Shown here piece by piece: positions 10,768 through 28,906 of a DNA stretch of 64,000 nucleotides. Source of the stretch: Gonapodya sp. JEL0774 (Eukaryota > Monoblepharomycota > Monoblepharidomycetes > Monoblepharidales > Gonapodyaceae); NCBI GenBank assembly GCA_027604505.1, contig JADIIX010000012.1, positions 212,137-276,136 on the forward strand, in the 5' to 3' direction. Positions within the stretch are counted from its first letter, which is position 1. The number at the start of each line of letters is the position of its first letter. The notes under the pieces are model-generated. The model saw only the letters and a list, made by a program, of their open reading frames with translations, had not been told where the DNA came from and made no database searches. The position numbers were made by a program, and so were the translations under genes.

Positions 10768-13700
10768 TTATGATTTGAACGATTTGCAGAAAGAGGAACA
10801 CCCACTCATCAGACTTTCCACTGCCTCTGACTCTTCCATCTCTTCTTCATATTCTCGCTCTCTCGCAGCTTCCGTTCGCACCTCTTTTGACGCGTGTAAT
10901 CGCTCTAAAATGGTTTTCTTCGACGGTCTCCACGAAGCGGCAAGTCTAGTCATCCGCAATACGCGATTGGAAACGGACATGTTGTCCCGACGCTGCTTGC
11001 CTTCACGCCTATATTGTCCGATTCGCTTCACCAGTTCCCACAGAGTACCACTTGGTTGATCCAAGAACCCCAAAGGTGGGATATAATCTGGGTGGAGTGC
11101 AAGGAATGTATGTGCTGGAGACTTTGACGCTGTTTGCGGCGGCATAACCGTGCCCACAGACGACGTCCCCCTTGAAGCGGGTGTTATAGAAGCTAATGGG
11201 CGAGATTTGCGGCCAACAATGACACCCATCTCTTGAAGGCGGGCCAGCGCATTCTTCAATGTTTCTTTATTGTACGCTTCCATTGTGACCAAGTCCCCTA
11301 GAGATCGGCGTTTGGTTATCATGCAATCTGTTCAATGAAACTAACTCACCTTCGTAATACAAAGTTCGACCAAACATCTGCAGTCTTGCCATCAAAGTAC
11401 CTTCGTCTACCCAATCAGAGGAGCCACCACCATCGTTAACGAGAGTAAAGAGGCCAACTGTCGCGACCCAGTACGCCTCCACAAATGGCCAAAGAAGGAA
11501 GCAAAATAGGTCTTTAAAGTGCGAGCATTCATCAGTTGATTGGATCTTATTCCCCAGTCCAGCAAGTCTCACCATACGTTTCTCTGCCGTTAGTGACTTC
11601 CTCTTTGGATAACGCGACCGTTCCATTCAAAGAATCCCCGAACCCGGTGCGTTCCACGCTGACGACAGCCTTTTCCTCCAAGTACTTCAAAGTGCCCCAA
11701 ACAGTGCTCTCAAGTTTCCCCGGTTGATAGATGAACTCGCCTTTGAGAAGTTGAGAGAGAAAAGACACATTATCAAGGAGATCAGGTTTGATGAGGATCC
11801 TGCGTGGTCAATCAACAAGAATAAGACGAAGCAAACGAATAGGGTACGTGCGGGCTTACCGGCGATGATTCGAGCGATGGCCAGAGCTGAAGGTGACACA
11901 GTTCGGGACGTCATTACGAGTTTGTAATCACTGTTGACCAGGCATGCCAACAAGAAATAAACCCACTTTTTGATGGAAATGTACTGTCGCAATTGTTTTC
12001 CAAATAATATAAGGAGCATGCAAAATTAGGAACAATGCAAATCGCTCACCATGGACAATGTGAGTATGGACTCGGAAACGAAGAGATTTATAACATTGTT
12101 TCTATACAAGGATAGCTCGAAGGGTTTGATGGCGTAGTAAACAGGCTCGAGAAGCCCTTTGCGTTCACCTATGTAGTCCTTAATGAGCGAAGAAATATGA
12201 GCCCAACATTCAATAAGTGCGGTTGTTTGGACTCACTCGAATGACCGATAGAGCTCGGTCGACAACAACCGGTGTCGTCATACCACCAAAATCTGCAACG
12301 GTACCGCCCTTCCCTATTACTTCCCCTCGCAGCCACGTGACTCGACGGATCAACTGCATAAATTGAGCCACGAGGTTTGAAATTAAGCAGTCTACCCATT
12401 CCCATTACTGTTCACCGACCTCTTCTCTTCCAACTCCATTTCCTCGCAACGTAAGGAGTACAGTGCCCACCAAAGCCGTGGGCATAACCACAGAGACGGC
12501 GTTGATGTTACTCAGAATCTGAAAGCCGAAAGATTGAAGAAGAAGCTGTCGGTGCTCAGTGTTTGTGGCGGGATTGAAATGTGGTCGCCTGTCGAACATG
12601 GAAATGTGCAGAATCGCTGTCCAAACCCACCCCAGCAATCAAGAAACCACAAAAACAGACCTATCCGTTGCGATTTCTTGCTTGATGAATTCGCTCATGA
12701 GATACGGCTTAGCGAACCGGATATCAATACGTCCGAGCCTTAGCTGTGAATGCAGGACCTGAGTGTGGACCCTCAATTCCTTTCGATCACGACACTCACC
12801 CCAAGAACTCTGCTTGCACTCGCGATCCCGGCAAGTGATTCTGGTGTTTTCTCACCACCAAGCAGTTCGGTAGCGTACGTGCTTGTTTCCACGACGTTAT
12901 CCTGCAATTTATGGAAACTTTACTCAATTTGAGTAACCATTGCACCAAAGGCTCAAAACCCACGTATCCGATGGACAGCGGAACAATGATACAATCTTTG
13001 GTTCGTCCATACAAAACACTTTCTTGTATCATCTTCAAAATGCTGAACGAAAGTCATACATCACCTGAGAAGGGCGCGAAAGTGGCTGGCATTAAACTCA
13101 CCCAAATCGAGGTGTCAAAAGCTTGCCCGTCCGGCTACGGGTACCTTCTATGAACACCTCTATGTGATCATTGGGCGAAATCAGTGAATTAAAATTGCGT
13201 TCGTCAAGACACCCCTTGTTAAATCGAAAAGAACGATATAATAACGCACCAATGTTGTGCCCTTTCTTCAAAAGCAGATCGATGTATTCACGAACGAGGA
13301 CCGAATATAGAGGAGTGTCACCCCAACCGCCTCTCCGAATGAAAAAAGCCCCACACTTGCGCAAAACAGGACCAACCACGGGCAGATCTCTGCAACCCAA
13401 TGAAGCTAACCATGACAAGTCGACGTAATTGATTCAAACCTAACGCACAAGTTGTTACCCGCGGCAATATGCGGCAAAGCAATTCCAAGCCTGAAAAGAA
13501 TGTAAGAAATGACCAAGTAATCGATATGGGATTTGTGGGAGGGCAGGAATATCATAGAGAGTTTCTCCTCTTCACCCTTGCGAGCCCATTTCTTCATCTC
13601 GATAATTTCTGACTCCCGAATGTGGATTCCTTGATGATACATTCGTTGCAAGATATTGTTGACGACGAACTCCATTAGATGCAACGCCGTGAGACTGGAC

Positions 13701-14191
13701 ATATCGGCGATGAGTCCTCCAACCTCCCGATGAAGCTTCTCCCACGTCTTCTTTTTAAAGGCGGAAAGGGATGGACGCTTTGTGAGGTCTCCAGTATATG
13801 AATCATACTCCTCTTGAGCATGCTTTCGAACTTCAGTTTTCACTGGGAGATATCCCCGTGGTATTCCGAGCAAAATTACACGAATAGACATGTAGGTAGG
13901 TCATCAGTAAAGATGTATTCAAGGACGGATCGCTTTCACACGAAAGTACATAATCGACTCACAGGATTCGGAGTTTGTCAAGTCCCCCGTAATATCCGCA
14001 TAGTATCCCGGACAAAAAATATCGGCACCTATGTAGTCTCTCTCCTCCCTCCATGAAGCACCGCCCAACCAGCTCTTGGTTTTGGTACCAGGTTCCGTGA
14101 GGGTGTTGCCCTCACGTAGGACATAAGTTGAACCCGTGTGCTCATGAATGTCGACAGTCTCCTTTGGAATCAGTGATGACCGTCGCTTCAT
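10768..14191 (-). CDS. Glycerol-3-phosphate/DHAP acyltransferase, plsB/GPAM/GNPAT type
   Basis: An acyltransferase for the first step of glycerolipid (or ether-lipid) synthesis, transferring an acyl group to glycerol-3-phosphate or dihydroxyacetone phosphate. All four acyltransferase blocks are present across several exons: block I LPSHKSHIDYL with the catalytic H-x4-D, block II GAFFIRRGG, block III EVFIEGTRSRTGK (restored by removing an intron inside 13155-13240), and block IV IIVPLSIGY. The C-terminal exons (11626 to 10768) carry a helical domain and a long charged tail. Start MKRRSSLIP at 14191 is the best ATG; the exons between 11700 and 12900 are only partly resolved. Ascomycete yeasts use a different acyltransferase family, so this type suggests an early-diverging fungus. 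Confidence 0.82.
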
Positions 14192-14463: not shown

Positions 14464-16675
14464 TTCACCAGCCTTCGAGCGTGTTCTTAAGGCGGTACTT
14501 GGCCATATCTGAATAGAAACCCACTCCACTCAGCCAATGTATCGTCTATGCACCACCAATCCAACAAACTGCACGCCAAAGCTACGTACCCGCAATGGTG
14601 ATCATTTTAATCCCAAACTTTTTCGCGAAAACTTCCAAGTCGTCCCTCCTTGCCATCTCGCCATCATCTTTTACAATCTCGCATATGACCCCAACAGGTG
14701 TCAAACCAGAAAGCTTGCAGAGATCTGTCCCAGAAACGATGAAACAATGGACACAAAAAGCACAAATGAATTCATCGAAGTAAGAGGGAAATTATCCACA
14801 GTGTGAAACTCACCAACAGCGGCTTCGGTATGACCAGTTCGCTTTAGAACACCACCGCGGTGTGCACGAAGGGGTAAAATGTGTCCCGGCCTGGCAAAGT
14901 CTGCAAGTTTCATTAGGTTGTTGGCGGTTAAATGCACCGAGGAGCTTCTCTGCATCCATAGCAAATTTCCCCACCTGCAGCTTTCCTCTTCGGGTCTGCT
15001 AACCCTCTCACTGTAGCTGCCCTATCAGCCGCTGAGATTCCAGTGGTGGTCTCACCGATGAGGTCGACAGTGACGGTGAAGGCAGTCCCCATATACTCCT
15101 TATTGTCATTGTTCGAGACCATCAGGGGGAGGTTCAGTTCTTCAAGGCGTTCGTAGGTCATAGGGGCGCAACTGCAATATCAAATGATGACGATTTGGGG
15201 TGGTGGGAATGCAATTTCAAAGAAGAAAGGAAGGTGTCAACAACACCCAAAGGTAGGGTATTCAAAGAGTCAGGGAAATTGGGTCACGTACACAAGACCA
15301 CTACTGTAACGAATAAGGAAGGCCATTTTTTCTTGGGTCATGAACTGCGCTGCAATGATAAGGTCTCCCTCGTTCTCACGGTCCTCTAAGGTTTAGAAAT
15401 GAGACCGTAAGACCGCAAAAGGACAAGAGAACATTTCGAACCCTGCACGAAGGAGCTGAAATGGCATCTACGTACCATCGTCAACGACTATGAGGAACTT
15501 GCCCTCGGCTGGAAAAGTGGGTTTCATACCAGCACGGACTATGAACATGTTTCTCGCTCTTACCAAAGTCCTTTAACGCATCCTCGATAGTGTCGAACCT
15601 ATGCTTTTGGGCGGATGCTGCAGCCCCTCCTGCCGCTGCAACTCGTTCTTCAAAGTTCGCCTTCACAACTTTCTCGACCACACCCTCCAAAGCCCTAAGA
15701 GCTTCCTCGTCCCCGGCGACGCGGTCGGCGACACTAGCAGGAAGGGAGCCAAGTGCTTGTTGGTGAGCCGTTGCGATGCGCTCGGAACTGGGCGCGCCGG
15801 TTGGTGGGGTGGAGGTGCCACTGGAGTTGGCATGTAGGTTACGGACGACACGGTCGACGTACTGAAGTGATGAGTTAACAACGGACAAAAGCAGTGTGAC
15901 GGTAGCCCACAATGCGAATGACCGTCAGCGAAGTGGAACAAATACCTTTCCGACAACGTCTACCTCGACGTTAACCTTGTCCCCAACTGCAAGGCGACCG
16001 AGGTTGATGTGTTCAAGGGTGTAAGGTATCAACATTACAGAGAACTCCTTTGCCTGTGAGTCCGCCCGGATGACTGTGAGAGATGTACCGTCCAGAGTAA
16101 TGAACCCCTTTGGGACAATGAAGGTGAAGGCATCTGGAAGTTGTTCCGTAGACGACTGGGGGAGGTGGAATGTAAAGATGACAGAGTTGGGGGGTTCCTG
16201 ACGAATAGAGCGGATCGTTGCGGTGGTGTCAACGTGTCCCTGAATGTTCGGGTCGGCAGGAATCCCGGCCATTCACGGGGTTCAGTCACGGTTCCGAAGA
16301 CATTCAAACCAGCATTAGCGACAGGAGGACAATGTGACAGTATATTTTCGACGTTGCTGGAGTAATCACCTGGACAAAGTGTCCGCCAAATCTACTTTTT
16401 GGTGCGATTGCCCTTTCAAGGTTGACCAGTGACCCAGGTTTCAGAGCCCCGAGAGCAGTACGGGAGAGAGTTTCCGGTGACAGATCGAAAGTGAAAGAAG
16501 CGTCTGCAGTCTCAATCTTTGTTACAGTGAGGCAAACTCCGTTCACATTGATGGAGTCTCCCAGCTTGGTGTCCTCGAGCAGAGCGGTGCATCCGCTTAC
16601 GACCAGACGGGTTTCTGAGTCACGGGCGGCCAATTCGGCAACAGACGCAAGAGCTTCAACGATGCCAGTGAACAT
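14464..16675 (-). CDS. Bifunctional riboflavin synthase - DHBP synthase fusion
   Basis: One gene encodes two steps of riboflavin synthesis. The N-terminal half is riboflavin synthase: start [18 protein letters not shown] in the first barrel, [13 protein letters not shown] across a splice junction, and LDGTSLTV in the second barrel. Exon 15861-15564 then runs in one frame from its last helix (YVDRVVRNL) through an Ala/Glu-rich linker into the first helix of DHBP synthase ([12 protein letters not shown]). Splicing gives [15 protein letters not shown], and later exons give [51 protein letters not shown] and a C-terminus [10 protein letters not shown]. Phases agree at every junction checked. In S. 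cerevisiae the two activities are the separate genes RIB5 and RIB3. Confidence 0.88.
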
Positions 16676-23787: not shown

Positions 23788-26700
23788 TCACTCCTCCTCC
23801 TCCTCCTCCTCGTCCTTACTCTCAGTATCAGCCATCATAGTGGCCGCCGGCCCCGCCGACTTGAACCTAATCTTGAGCGCTCCTCCACGGGTCGCGGCAC
23901 CTCCATCCATCGCAGTCGCCGGTTTCACCTTCTTGGGACGGCCCCTCTTCCGAGGTCCCTCGCTTTTCACTATCTCATCCGCCTCGCTGTTGTGCACGCT
24001 GCCTGCGTCGACCGACATGCCATCAGTCTCCTCACCATAGTCGTCTCCAAGGTCTTGCATTCTCCTTTTGCGATCTCCTCGGCCTCCCTTCTCTGCATCA
24101 TCCTCCCTCCTCTTCCTCTTGCCCGCAGTGGTCACGCTCAACGAATCTTCAGTGCCGTCATCGTCACTCCCGTCCATATCATCGCTCTCGACGTCCGAGT
24201 CCTCCCATTGTCTGTTCGCCAGCTTGTCTTCGTTAAAGGTCACACCGTCACGGCGGCGGCGCCCACGGCCAAACGAGAAAGGGTCGTCCCTCCGAACAAC
24301 CTTGGGCTGATCCTTGCGGAAAATCTCGGGGACCTCTTCCAATTGCATCAACCTGGGCCTCGGTGACTGCCCCTGTGCACGCCACTCCTGCGCATCTCGA
24401 GCTGCGATGTCCACATCCATCCTCCGGAACATCTCCATCTCCTCCTCGTTTCGCGCGATTATCTCCAGAAGATCCTCATCCCGGGTCTCCTCCTCCTCAG
24501 CATCAATCCCATCATTCTCGTTCTCGTCCTCGCCTTCTCCACCCTCCCCACCACCAAGGAGAGACCTCAGAAAAGCCTCTCGCTCCTCATTAGTCGACTT
24601 GTTATCAAACTTTCCCGCTTGGATGACCTTGCTGTCCATATCCAACTTGTACCGCGCCCTCTGGAGAATGTTCTCCTCGACTGAGCGTGCAGTCACCAAA
24701 CGAAAGATCTTGACCTCCTTCGTCTGTCCAATACGATGTGCGCGGTCTTGCGCCTGGAGATCCTGGTGCGGATTCCTTTAGGGCGAAGAGACAAAGGACA
24801 AACGTACAAAACGTCAATATTTGAATTCCAAACCCTCATAATCCACTCCCGAACATACCAGTCTGAATCAAAAATGATAACTGTGTCCGCCACCTGCAGA
24901 TTGAGCCCCAAACCGCCTGCCCTTGTCGACAATATAAAGAGCTTGTAGTCTGATCTGGGCGAATTGAATTCCGCCATCATGTTCGCACGGTCCTCGTGTT
25001 TGGTGTGACCATCCAGGCGGAGGACGCCGATGCCACGGTAAGCGCAATACTCTACAAATACATCCATGACAAGGGTCTATTGAAAACGGTGAGCGAGATA
25101 CGGCTCGCTGGTTAGGAATTGATCGAGTTCATGCACGATGCGAATCCATCCGCATACGAACCATTTGGAAGAACATGAGCACCTTGTGCCCCGCCGCAAA
25201 GAACTTCGGCAGAATCCTATCCAACAACTCGAACTTCCCAGAAACCCTGTACAGCGACATGTTGTCCTGCATTCCGGGGTCGATCACGTCACGAACCTCG
25301 TGGAAGGCGAATGGATGGTTGCAGACTTTGCGTAAGTGCATCAGCGTGTTGCGGAGACCTTTAACGCCAGAGCTAGCAGTTTGCGTGAGAGAAGGAAAGA
25401 AAAGGCAACATAAGGCTCCGTGCAAGCAACCCACCACTAGACTCCTCTCGGTACTTACGTCGACTTCCCGGCGGTGCCCAACATCGGCAACACCCCGTGC
25501 TTTTTGATCTGATCATACAATCTCTGTTGCAATGCGCTGAACCCGCACTTGATGACCTTTTCGGTTTTTCCGGGCAACTGTGCCTCCACATCCTTCTTGA
25601 GACGGCGGAGGAGGAACGGACGGAGAACCTTATGAAGTCTCTTGATGATGAGCAGTTGTTCTTCCTCGTTGAGGGCGACATTGTCTTGGTTCACGCCCGC
25701 GACGGCTTGACCTTTGAAAGGACTAAAACGGGTACATACAAAAACATCAGAACAACGCGGATCAATACCACTAAGCAACCAGACCCACCTGTTGAACCAT
25801 TCATCGAACGTCTTCACAGAATCGAAAATCTTGGGGCAGATGAAATTGAGCAGGGACCACAACTCGGGCAGATTGTTTTGCAGTGGCGTGCCCGTGAGAA
25901 TGAGACGGTACCGACTCGAATAGTGCGTAGTGAGGATTTGGACAAGCTTGGCTTCAGTGTTCTTCATGCGGTGACCCTCTGGTGTTGGTAAACGGTAGTG
26001 GTAGCACATGTAAGTGATCGAGCTCCAAACAACAGAGCATTGCCAGCCACCCGCCTCAAGTCTTCCCAAATAATCGCACGTCGCTCCAACTCACCATCAA
26101 TGATCATGTACACCCATTTGATCCTACTCAACGCAGGTCTGTCCTTATCGTTGATAACAAACTGATAGGTCGTGAGAAGCACATTGAAATCCCCCTTCTT
26201 GAGTTCCTGCTGGAGCGCCTTTCGCGCCAAAGGCGGGCCCTTGTACACAATTTTCGAGACGCTCGGCGCCCACTTTTCGAACTCCATCGACCAGTTGGTG
26301 AGGGTAGACAGAGGGACGATTACGAGGAACGGTCCCGCTTGGCGTTTACGTTCGACGAGATACGAGATAAGGGAGATGGTTTGGATGGTTTTGCCCAGAC
26401 CTGAGGTGGGGAGAAGGATTTGGAAAGTGAATTCATGACCGAAGAGGAAGCCGAGAATCCCATGTACTCACCCATCTCATCAGCCAGGATGCCATTCAGC
26501 CTGTTATTGTACAGACTGACCATCCACTCCAGACCCTTAATCTGGTACTCTTTGAGATTACCACCTTTGTTCATAATAGTCGGTTGCTCCGTGACGGGTT
26601 CCACAATACGGTGAGCCACAGCGTAATAGTCCAACTTGCCGGCTTTGCGACGACGAGCAGACTCCTCGGCTGCTCCAGCAAAATCGGTGGCAGGAACTTT

Positions 26701-28464
26701 GCCCTTTTCGTCGCTTTCCTCCTCGTCGTCGTCCGAGAAGAGTTGGGACTCGTCAATTTCGAGGGGCTCTCCCTCGCCGATGGCCTTTTGTTGGGCTAGG
26801 ACTTGCGCCGAAAGGTTCTTGAGGAATGTAGAGGTTTGGTTGAGGATGGTGGTAATGCGAGTGTCCTTCGCGGATTCCACGAGTTTGAGGTAGGCTTCTT
26901 CGTCTGTATGATGGGAACAAGGACGGAGAGGAGTGTAAGGTGAGTTTATGGACGGACCAAATTGAGCAAATCGCGTCGCGAATTTGACATTCGGCGAATC
27001 AAATTCTCCATGGTACTTTTCCAAGACGGAATCCAGTGCATACGGACGCATAACCGACGCATAACCGATGCAAGAACCTGTCGAGTCCTTCGAACCCCAA
27101 GATCAGAAGACACATGCAAACAAAAACGTACCATCCTCCCTCAAAGCCCTCAATCTCTCCTTACTCAACCTCTCCACCTTTGCCTGTTCCTCTTTCTCGA
27201 CCCTCGAATGCAACCTTACGATAGCCTGCCCCAACCTCTGAAGCCTCGCGTGCCGCTGCCTGTGCCAGCTCTTGACGACACCAGCCTGCTGCGCCGCCTG
27301 TTCGACGAACTCAAGCTGCCGGGCCTTGTCCTTGCGTTCACGCTCGACACGTTGCTGGCGCTCGAGCTTGTCTGTGGATCTGGCTTCGCGAACGGAGGGT
27401 TTCTTGGGTCGGCGGAAATAGGCCCGGTCGAGGGAGGCGAGAGGAAGTTGGGACGAACTGCGGGTGTGGGAGAGCAGAATGGTCTTGCGAAGTTCGCGTT
27501 GAAAGGGGAGTAGTTTGAGGGCCTTGAGTTCCGTGAGGACGCGGAGTTTGAGCGAGGATGCGCCACCGTTGGCGTCAATTGCTGCGAGAGCAGAGGAGCC
27601 AACAGGATCACCTGCGATGTTGAGGGGTAATTTCTCGAGCTCGTGGATGCGCGCTTGGACACGGACAGTGATTCGATGATCCCGCTCGCGAGCAAGTGTG
27701 GCGGGGTCCAGTGCGGTTGGGGCAATCGCAGGCACCAAGAGACGGTGAAAACGACCCGCGTGGTCAGCGTGAGAAATAGGGCGGGTGAGGAGAGCGTACG
27801 GGTTTGAGTCCTTGTTGATTCGATATGGTGAAGGGACGGGTGTGGCTGAGGCAGGGCCACCCGTGGTCGCCATTACAGATGTAGATGAAGACGACGCCGA
27901 GACGGCAGGAGTAGACGGGGCCACTTCGGGGGCATTTTGGGGTTGGGTTGAAAGCACGTCGCCGACCCCGGAGCCCCCCAGAAAGGATTCAGAAGCGGGC
28001 GAGTGCGAAGTGGCGGGCCCGGCGTTCTGCGAGACTGGCTTGGAAGCGTCGGAGTTACCGTCAATAGGGAGTCTTAATTCGATTTGGTATGGTTTGGGGT
28101 TTGAAAGGAGGTCGATTCCCAGTGATTTGAGGGGGAGAGGATGAATTTGGCAGCGGAGGCGAAAAAAAGAAGCAAAAGCGGCAAAATGTGGAAAGGTTAA
28201 CAGCGGGCAAGGCGGAAGCGCGGAATGATTGGGAAGAGAATTGAAGCCGTCCAGGTGAAGCTGGGCAGCTGTGGGGTGCCAGAACAGGCACACCACAACC
28301 CCCCCCACCAACAGCAGGAGGCCATGAACGCACCCTCTGACAATGCGTCTGAACTCGAGAATCTGCTTGCGAAGAGTGTCTGCTTGCTCTCGGTTGAAAG
28401 GCGTTCCCACTCCGCCGCCTGTCGGGGGAAGCATCGAAGTCAAAGTGGTCATTGAGAGTTTCAT
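23788..28464 (-). CDS. SNF2/STH1-type chromatin-remodelling ATPase
   Basis: Catalytic subunit of a SWI/SNF or RSC-like remodeller, acting on nucleosomes in the nucleus. Seen in order: a divergent QLQ motif ([16 protein letters not shown]), a Ser/Pro-rich region, a charged HSA helix (near 27150-27400), the SNF2 ATPase core ([19 protein letters not shown], then IIDEGHRMKN across a junction, [19 protein letters not shown]), the helicase C-terminal lobe ([22 protein letters not shown]), a SnAC-like region, acidic stretches, and an AT-hook KRGRPKK. The C-terminus ends in a poly-Glu run at 23788 with no bromodomain. The start is one of two nearby ATGs (28464 or 28452). Introns in the N-terminal third are not fully resolved. 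Confidence 0.88.
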
Positions 28465-28906
28465 ATTTGGGTGTGCGCAGAAATAGCTGGCCCAAAGTTT
28501 ACTGTGGTCTCGCACGGACCACCTGGAGAAAATCGCATTTCTCGAGTTGGCCATTTCTGCGGTATTTTGAAATTATTTGCTTGCTTGTCGCAAGTTTTAA
28601 AAATAAGAGTGCGCAAGCTGCATTGCTCAGACGGCCCACAGGAGACCAGGGGAAGCTGGTTGAAAGGGATTTCGGAGTTTGGGCTTACAAAATTAATCAT
28701 CCCGAGGCCCATTTCACGTTTAAAAATATCGGAGTCCATATTCTTGGTCCATCAGTATCCTCGGTTGCAGTTGCCCAGTTCAGCGAACAAAGGGGAGCGG
28801 CGCCAGTATGACGTGTGAACATCCCAACTCGACTCGTTGAATCTACTCGCTAGAAGAGACACAGGAACGGCGACGGTTACACCCAAGCAGCGATAGATCT
28901 TCAATA
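28465..28906. promoter_or_regulatory. Divergent promoter region between SNF2-type and GATA-finger genes
   Basis: 442 bp between divergent starts. It must hold both promoters; no specific site is recognised. Confidence 0.4.

What the first reader, a model, noticed from the sequence alone, without database searches (positions are those of the whole stretch)
14464..16675. Riboflavin synthase fused to DHBP synthase in one gene
Seen: exon 15861-15564 runs without a stop from the last riboflavin-synthase helix into the first DHBP-synthase helix, and every splice junction checked keeps phase through to the C-terminus. Known: the reactions are two steps of the same pathway, and in yeast they are RIB5 and RIB3, separate genes; bacteria fuse DHBP synthase to GTP cyclohydrolase II instead. 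Inference: a single bifunctional enzyme placing the C4-donor-forming step and the final step on one chain. I do not know this fusion to be described, but cannot search.
Basis: partly seen in the sequence, partly recalled or inferred. Interest (0 to 1): 0.75.

Follow-up and report, generated by a model that had tools for sequence, protein, structure and literature searches.

The report
Fused vitamin-B2 enzyme in aquatic fungus
A freshwater fungus appears to make two enzymes of the vitamin-B2 pathway as one joined protein, built from its own genes by copying one and joining the copy to the other; it is real but a modest novelty, because some bacteria carry the same join.

Summary
On the minus strand, 9 exons (16675-14465) with GT..AG introns give one 495-residue frame: a two-barrel riboflavin synthase (RIB5-type), a ~80-residue linker and a complete DHBP synthase (RIB3-type). 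No in-frame Met lies between residues 171 and 326, so the DHBPS part (motif DEDRENEGD at 310) has no AUG of its own; it is the only DHBPS found in the 25-Mb assembly.

Gonapodya prolifera JEL478 has the same fusion (P0001, 79% identical). Its RIB5 half is sister to a stand-alone RIB5 that both Gonapodya keep; its RIB3 half is sister to stand-alone RIB3 of Hyaloraphidium. The linker resembles the fungal RIB5 C-tail. So: a RIB5 duplication, one copy fused upstream of the native RIB3.

The architecture is not unique: Rothia, Kocuria and Nesterenkonia proteins have it too, but shared ancestry of the fusions is rejected. 'Bacteria fuse DHBPS to GCHII instead' is thus incomplete, and this gene is not the only riboflavin synthase. 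Eight paper searches listed nothing that describes it. One mRNA and both activities are inferred, not shown.

The parts
14465..16675 (-). whole fused gene, ATG at 16675 to stop at 14465, 9 exons, 495 aa
   Evidence: single transcript not tested
15946..16675 (-). exons 1-2 (16675-16370, 16239-15946): riboflavin synthase residues 1-200, both lumazine-binding barrels
   Evidence: PF00677 two stretches, TIGR00187 over residues 1-212
15564..15861 (-). exon 3: last riboflavin-synthase helix, linker with RIB5-like C-tail (residues 201-287), first DHBPS helix (288-299)
   Evidence: open frame without Met; tail profile 6.2 bits, reached by 2 of 2000 shuffles
14465..15508 (-). exons 4-9 (15508-15476, 15385-15292, 15171-14975, 14900-14814, 14724-14590, 14508-14465): DHBP synthase catalytic core to C-terminus
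   Evidence: PF00926 residues 293-486, 1-191/191; TIGR00506

Best explanation
A single nuclear gene of Gonapodya sp. [quoted passage not shown] Shown from sequence: one frame through 9 exons, both domains complete, no AUG for a separate DHBPS, the same fusion in a second Gonapodya, no other DHBPS found in the assembly. Supported by trees: RIB5 was duplicated in the Gonapodya lineage; one copy stayed alone, the other was joined, C-tail included, in front of the native fungal RIB3. Inferred: one mRNA and two working active sites. Inferred logic: the DHBPS half makes DHBP and the RIB5 half releases 5-amino-6-ribitylaminouracil when it dismutates lumazine; these are the two substrates of lumazine synthase (RIB4), and the RIB5 half consumes RIB4's product, so the fusion would feed and drain RIB4 from one particle.
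For: One frame and domains. No in-frame Met between residues 171 and 326. PF00926 and a RibBA protein find only this locus in the 25.0-Mb assembly. P0001 of G. prolifera has the same architecture; identity 167/205 in RIB5, 42/77 aligned residues in the linker, 181/208 in DHBPS. RibE tree: fused pair sister to the stand-alone Gonapodya pair, 94/98. DHBPS tree: fused pair sister to Hyaloraphidium, 97/93. Linker against a fungal RIB5 tail profile: 6.2 bits (2 of 2000 shuffles reach it), P0001 linker 9.8 bits (0 of 2000), 5 of 5 bacterial linkers below zero. DHBPS 43 of 43 near-invariant columns kept. A phase-0 intron at GGH[FM]VQ|GH is shared by fused and stand-alone genes.
Against: No transcript or protein data. 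The fused RIB5 half departs at 8 (JEL0774; 3 of them gaps in one loop) and 7 (JEL478) of 65 near-invariant fungal columns, against 3 in each stand-alone copy, and has a longer stem in the tree (1.09 against 0.33), so its catalytic role is less secure. The 94/98 branch is below the starred level and the bootstrap had not settled. The coupling to RIB4 is untested.
Confidence: 0.78

Rival explanations
1. The fused riboflavin-synthase half is no longer a main riboflavin synthase: the stand-alone RIB5 on C72 does that, and the fused half serves as an oligomerising scaffold or a flavin/lumazine-binding regulator of DHBPS.
For: A stand-alone RIB5 exists in both Gonapodya; the fused copy has more departures from near-invariant columns (8 and 7 against 3 and 3 of 65) and a longer stem.
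Against: Residues F2, C48, H99, H104, K146, D152, S155, T157, D196, which correspond to positions I recall as important in E. coli riboflavin synthase, are all present; the domain scores well above the NCBIfam ribE cut-off and is 167/205 identical between two species.
Confidence: 0.15
2. Two genes or two messages: the locus is transcribed or processed into separate RIB5 and RIB3 products, and the joined frame is a gene-model artefact.
For: No transcript was seen. Retention of the 55-nt intron 3 would shift the frame and stop at 15481 (open frame), leaving a RIB5-only product.
Against: The junction lies inside one exon without a stop; DHBPS has no AUG before its catalytic loop; the separate assembly of JEL478 is annotated with the same fused protein.
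Confidence: 0.04
3. The fusion was acquired whole from actinobacteria, which carry the same architecture.
For: Same domain order in Rothia, Kocuria and Nesterenkonia proteins.
Against: Both halves group with fungi; holding the 2 fungal fusions with 9 actinobacterial-type rows (6 named) is rejected, AU p 0.021 (RibE) and 0.0039 (DHBPS), groups chosen after seeing the trees; eukaryotic introns and a fungal RIB5-like tail in the linker.
Confidence: 0.02

Closest known systems
Gonapodya prolifera JEL478 protein M427DRAFT_51415 (P0001)
   Same: Same order RIB5-linker-RIB3, 79% identical over 100% of the query; both halves sister to the window's in the trees
   Different: Linker 5 residues shorter and with two Met residues; labelled hypothetical or as DHBP synthase in the databases
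Actinobacterial RibE-RibB and RibE-RibB-RibA fusions (Rothia, Kocuria, Nesterenkonia; also frames in Kribbella L045 and Nonomuraea L051)
   Same: Riboflavin synthase followed by DHBPS in one frame
   Different: Listed ones 39-44% identical where aligned over nearly the full length; short linkers without the fungal tail; some also carry GTP cyclohydrolase II; not one clade with the fungal fusion
RibBA (DHBPS-GTP cyclohydrolase II)
   Same: Shares the DHBPS domain
   Different: No GTP cyclohydrolase II domain here: no PF00925 match in the protein
Polychytrium aggregatum DHBPS with an N-terminal amidohydrolase-like segment (P0119)
   Same: Another chytrid protein with an extra segment in front of DHBPS
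   Different: Partner matches PF01979, not riboflavin synthase; its DHBPS groups with other chytrids, not with Gonapodya
Bacillus subtilis heavy riboflavin synthase (lumazine synthase capsid around riboflavin synthase; recalled)
   Same: Couples the last riboflavin-pathway steps in one particle
   Different: Non-covalent, involves lumazine synthase rather than DHBPS; the likeness is functional only and untested

Membership tests
Riboflavin synthase (RIB5/RibE) | Two lumazine-binding barrels and score above the curated family cut-off | tested here: met
   PF00677 two stretches; TIGR00187 214.7 against 156.6 bits
Riboflavin synthase (RIB5/RibE) | Active-site residues (positions recalled from the E. 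coli enzyme) | tested here: met
   F2, C48, H99, H104, K146, D152, S155, T157, D196 present; choice of residues is from memory
Riboflavin synthase (RIB5/RibE) | Dismutation activity and trimer formation | not testable with these tools
   needs the protein
DHBP synthase (RIB3/RibB) | Complete domain above the curated cut-off, near-invariant residues kept | tested here: met
   PF00926 1-191/191; TIGR00506 259.5 against 177.45 bits; 43 of 43 columns
DHBP synthase (RIB3/RibB) | Conversion of ribulose 5-phosphate to DHBP | not testable with these tools
   needs the protein
RibE-RibB bifunctional architecture | Both domains in one uninterrupted frame, RibE first | tested here: met
Actinobacterial RibE-RibB fusion lineage | Common descent of the fusion | tested here: not met
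   AU p 0.021 and 0.0039 against one clade
RibBA | GTP cyclohydrolase II domain after DHBPS | tested here: not met
   Pfam lists only PF00926 and PF00677

The most novel reading that the evidence does not exclude
The fusion is a dedicated feeder for lumazine synthase: it makes both RIB4 substrates (new DHBP from ribulose 5-phosphate and recycled ribitylaminouracil from the dismutation) and removes RIB4's product. Joining a trimer-forming enzyme to a dimer-forming one makes it assemble into a closed particle, for example two riboflavin-synthase trimers bridged by three DHBPS dimers, while the stand-alone RIB5 has another role. This would be a eukaryotic counterpart, reached by gene fusion, of the bacterial lumazine synthase/riboflavin synthase complex.
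Probability: 0.2. Interest if true: 0.6.

Novelty: new variant of a known kind. Interest (0 to 1): 0.4.

Why it matters
Two non-consecutive vitamin-B2 enzymes have been joined in a fungal lineage from its own parts, and separately in bacteria. Repeated origin of the same pairing suggests that coupling DHBP supply to the final step is useful, probably around lumazine synthase, and Gonapodya, with a fused and a stand-alone RIB5 in one genome, makes that testable. The fusion may also serve as a rare genomic marker within Monoblepharidomycetes, and it shows that the separate-gene layout known from yeast does not hold for all fungi.

Tried and rejected
Rejected or disfavoured: transfer of the whole fusion from bacteria; two separate genes; membership of RibBA.

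Tried without result. GTP cyclohydrolase II in the own genome: PF00925, TIGR00505, a bacterial RibBA protein (which found only the DHBPS exons of this gene) and an 81-residue recalled stretch gave no match, 4 of 4; an assembly gap, an intron-split gene and true absence cannot be told apart, and the tool itself says that the empty answer shows nothing. Literature: 8 answered searches, of which six bore on the fusion and two on the active site and on the strain. I saw listings with starts of abstracts only (of 31 and 29 papers matching searches were listed), and 12 passages of PMC10366380. No listed title or abstract start describes a riboflavin synthase-DHBPS fusion; most subscription papers are not held. 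Dating the fusion within Monoblepharidomycetes failed: beyond Gonapodya only Hyaloraphidium RIB3 (P0263) was seen; its placement in that class is recalled.

Rows dropped or chosen. RibE tree: 36 stand-alone rows chosen from the 120 listed, plus 17 of 19 chosen fusions (P0094, P0103 left out) and the query. DHBPS tree: 29 chosen rows fusions and the query; 29 fungal stand-alone rows; 27 of 31 fungal rows (4 lost to the cutting pattern). One search kept the best 80 of at least 586 loci and read only forward frames of 80 residues or more, so '3 fused of 80' is no census.

Full report
Observation. On the minus strand the region 16675-14465 reads as nine exons with GT..AG introns of 55-130 nt and gives one frame of 495 codons plus stop. 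Four starts were tried for exon 5; two kept the frame, and only 15385 keeps the full motif [10 protein letters not shown]. Residues 1-212 match riboflavin synthase (TIGR00187, 214.7 bits) and residues 289-487 DHBP synthase (TIGR00506, 259.5 bits). Among solved structures the best matches are DHBP synthase 1tks (E 9.5e-68) and, for the N-terminal half, riboflavin synthase 1kzl (E 1.5e-41); that these are from Candida and S. pombe is recalled.

One protein or two. Met occurs at residue 171 and next at 326, whereas the DHBPS loop DEDRENEGD begins at 310, so a separate DHBPS would need a non-AUG start or another exon. This holds for JEL0774; the JEL478 linker has two Met residues. PF00926 finds no other DHBPS locus in the 25.0-Mb, 381-contig assembly, nor does a RibBA protein; both searches read exons in six frames and score only the best candidates. 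The same architecture is annotated in G. prolifera JEL478 (P0001, 490 aa). The two agree in 167 of 205 RIB5 residues, 42 of 77 aligned linker residues (5 gaps) and 181 of 208 DHBPS residues.

Organism. P0122, named 'Riboflavin synthase alpha chain [Gonapodya sp. JEL0774]', is given a contig of 110,729 bases, the length of contig C72 that carries this gene in the window's genome, and its sequence agrees with the C72 exons. I infer that the window is from JEL0774. A caution: P0125 of Fimicolochytrium has a contig length equal to that of C12 (276,136); PF00677 finds nothing else on C12 than this gene, so I take that as coincidence. The JEL0774 fusion itself was not among the 120 rows listed in any.

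Origin. In the RibE tree (54 rows) the two fused domains pair (100/100) and their sister is the pair of stand-alone Gonapodya RIB5 (94/98, not starred), among fungal sequences; the bootstrap had not settled. In the DHBPS tree (49 rows) the fused pair is sister to the stand-alone RIB3 of Hyaloraphidium curvatum (97/93), within a set of fungi, Capsaspora and one further eukaryote-database row (97/93). Holding the two fungal fusions with 9 actinobacterial-type fusions (6 of them named) costs 36.8 and 66.7 log units, AU p 0.021 and 0.0039; the groups were named after seeing the trees. The linker matches a profile of fungal RIB5 C-tails (6.2 bits, reached by 2 of 2000 shuffles; JEL478 linker 9.8 bits, 0 of 2000), and 5 of 5 bacterial linkers score below zero. 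A phase-0 intron at GGH[FM]VQ|GH is shared by the fused and the stand-alone gene. The simplest history is a RIB5 duplication in the Gonapodya lineage and fusion of one copy, tail included, in front of the native RIB3.

How common is the architecture. Of the 120 listed relatives of the whole protein (best 120 of 7998 scored), 113, P0001 among them, hold both domains; 25 of these carry a precomputed GTP cyclohydrolase II domain too (26 by my own comparison). Named bacterial ones are Rothia, Kocuria, Nesterenkonia and one Curtobacterium. In a capped scan of bacterial and archaeal genomes 3 of 80 loci had both domains in one frame (Kribbella L045, Nonomuraea L051, Nesterenkonia L080), 63 had both in separate frames of the same stretch, and 14 lacked one of the two. 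In bacteria the genes thus often stand near each other, which would ease fusion; in a fungus with dispersed RIB genes a rearrangement was needed (inference).

Function. DHBPS keeps 43 of 43 columns that are near-invariant over 47 other rows. The RIB5 half keeps nine residues that I recall as important in E. coli, but departs at 8 (JEL0774; 3 are gaps in one loop) or 7 (JEL478) of 65 near-invariant fungal columns, against 3 in each stand-alone copy, and its stem is longer (1.09 against 0.33). Changed function of the fused RIB5 half is therefore a live rival. AlphaFold2 of P0001 with 46 rows gives a mean pLDDT of 86.3 and pTM 0.51: two well-predicted domains, linker helices at about 70-76 and linker ends near 50, so the placing of the domains is unknown. 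PMC10366380 (passages only) states that riboflavin synthase is a trimer with active sites between subunits and DHBPS a homodimer with active sites at the interface. I infer a mixed-symmetry assembly. From the textbook reactions (recalled) I infer that DHBP and recycled ribitylaminouracil, the products of the two halves, are the two substrates of lumazine synthase, whose gene is separate (C141).

Rest of the pathway. RIB4, a RibD_C-type reductase, a stand-alone RIB5 on C72 and a divergent third lumazine-binding gene on C190 are present. GTP cyclohydrolase II was not found.

Print. Of 8 answered paper searches, six bore on the fusion; no listed title or abstract start describes it, and the library lacks most subscription papers.

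Noticed in passing
whole genome G000: No GTP cyclohydrolase II (first step of the pathway) was found by two profiles, one bacterial protein and one recalled stretch, although RIB3, RIB4, RIB5 and a RibD_C reductase are present; an assembly gap is the plain explanation.
   Followed up: partly
L009:1333-2635 (contig C190): A third, divergent lumazine-binding gene reads VFAGRIE in place of MFTGIVE and scores only just above the Pfam cut-off in two pieces; perhaps a non-catalytic flavin-binding paralogue.
   Followed up: partly
P0119 (Polychytrium aggregatum): DHBPS with an N-terminal segment matching amidohydrolase PF01979, possibly another fusion or a gene-model join.
   Followed up: no
L092 (Cellulomonadaceae MAG): One frame matched both the riboflavin synthase and the GTP cyclohydrolase II queries but not DHBPS, possibly a different fusion.
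   Followed up: no
P0112: An 828-aa bacterial protein carries RibD-type domains (PF00383, PF01872) in front of riboflavin synthase and DHBPS, a still larger fusion of the pathway.
   Followed up: no
window 13406-13900 (-): Directly downstream of the fused gene lies an exon weakly matching an acyltransferase (PF01553, below cut-off).
   Followed up: no
window 23788-28572 (-): Open frames with SnAC and HSA domains look like exons of a SWI/SNF-type chromatin remodeller.
   Followed up: no
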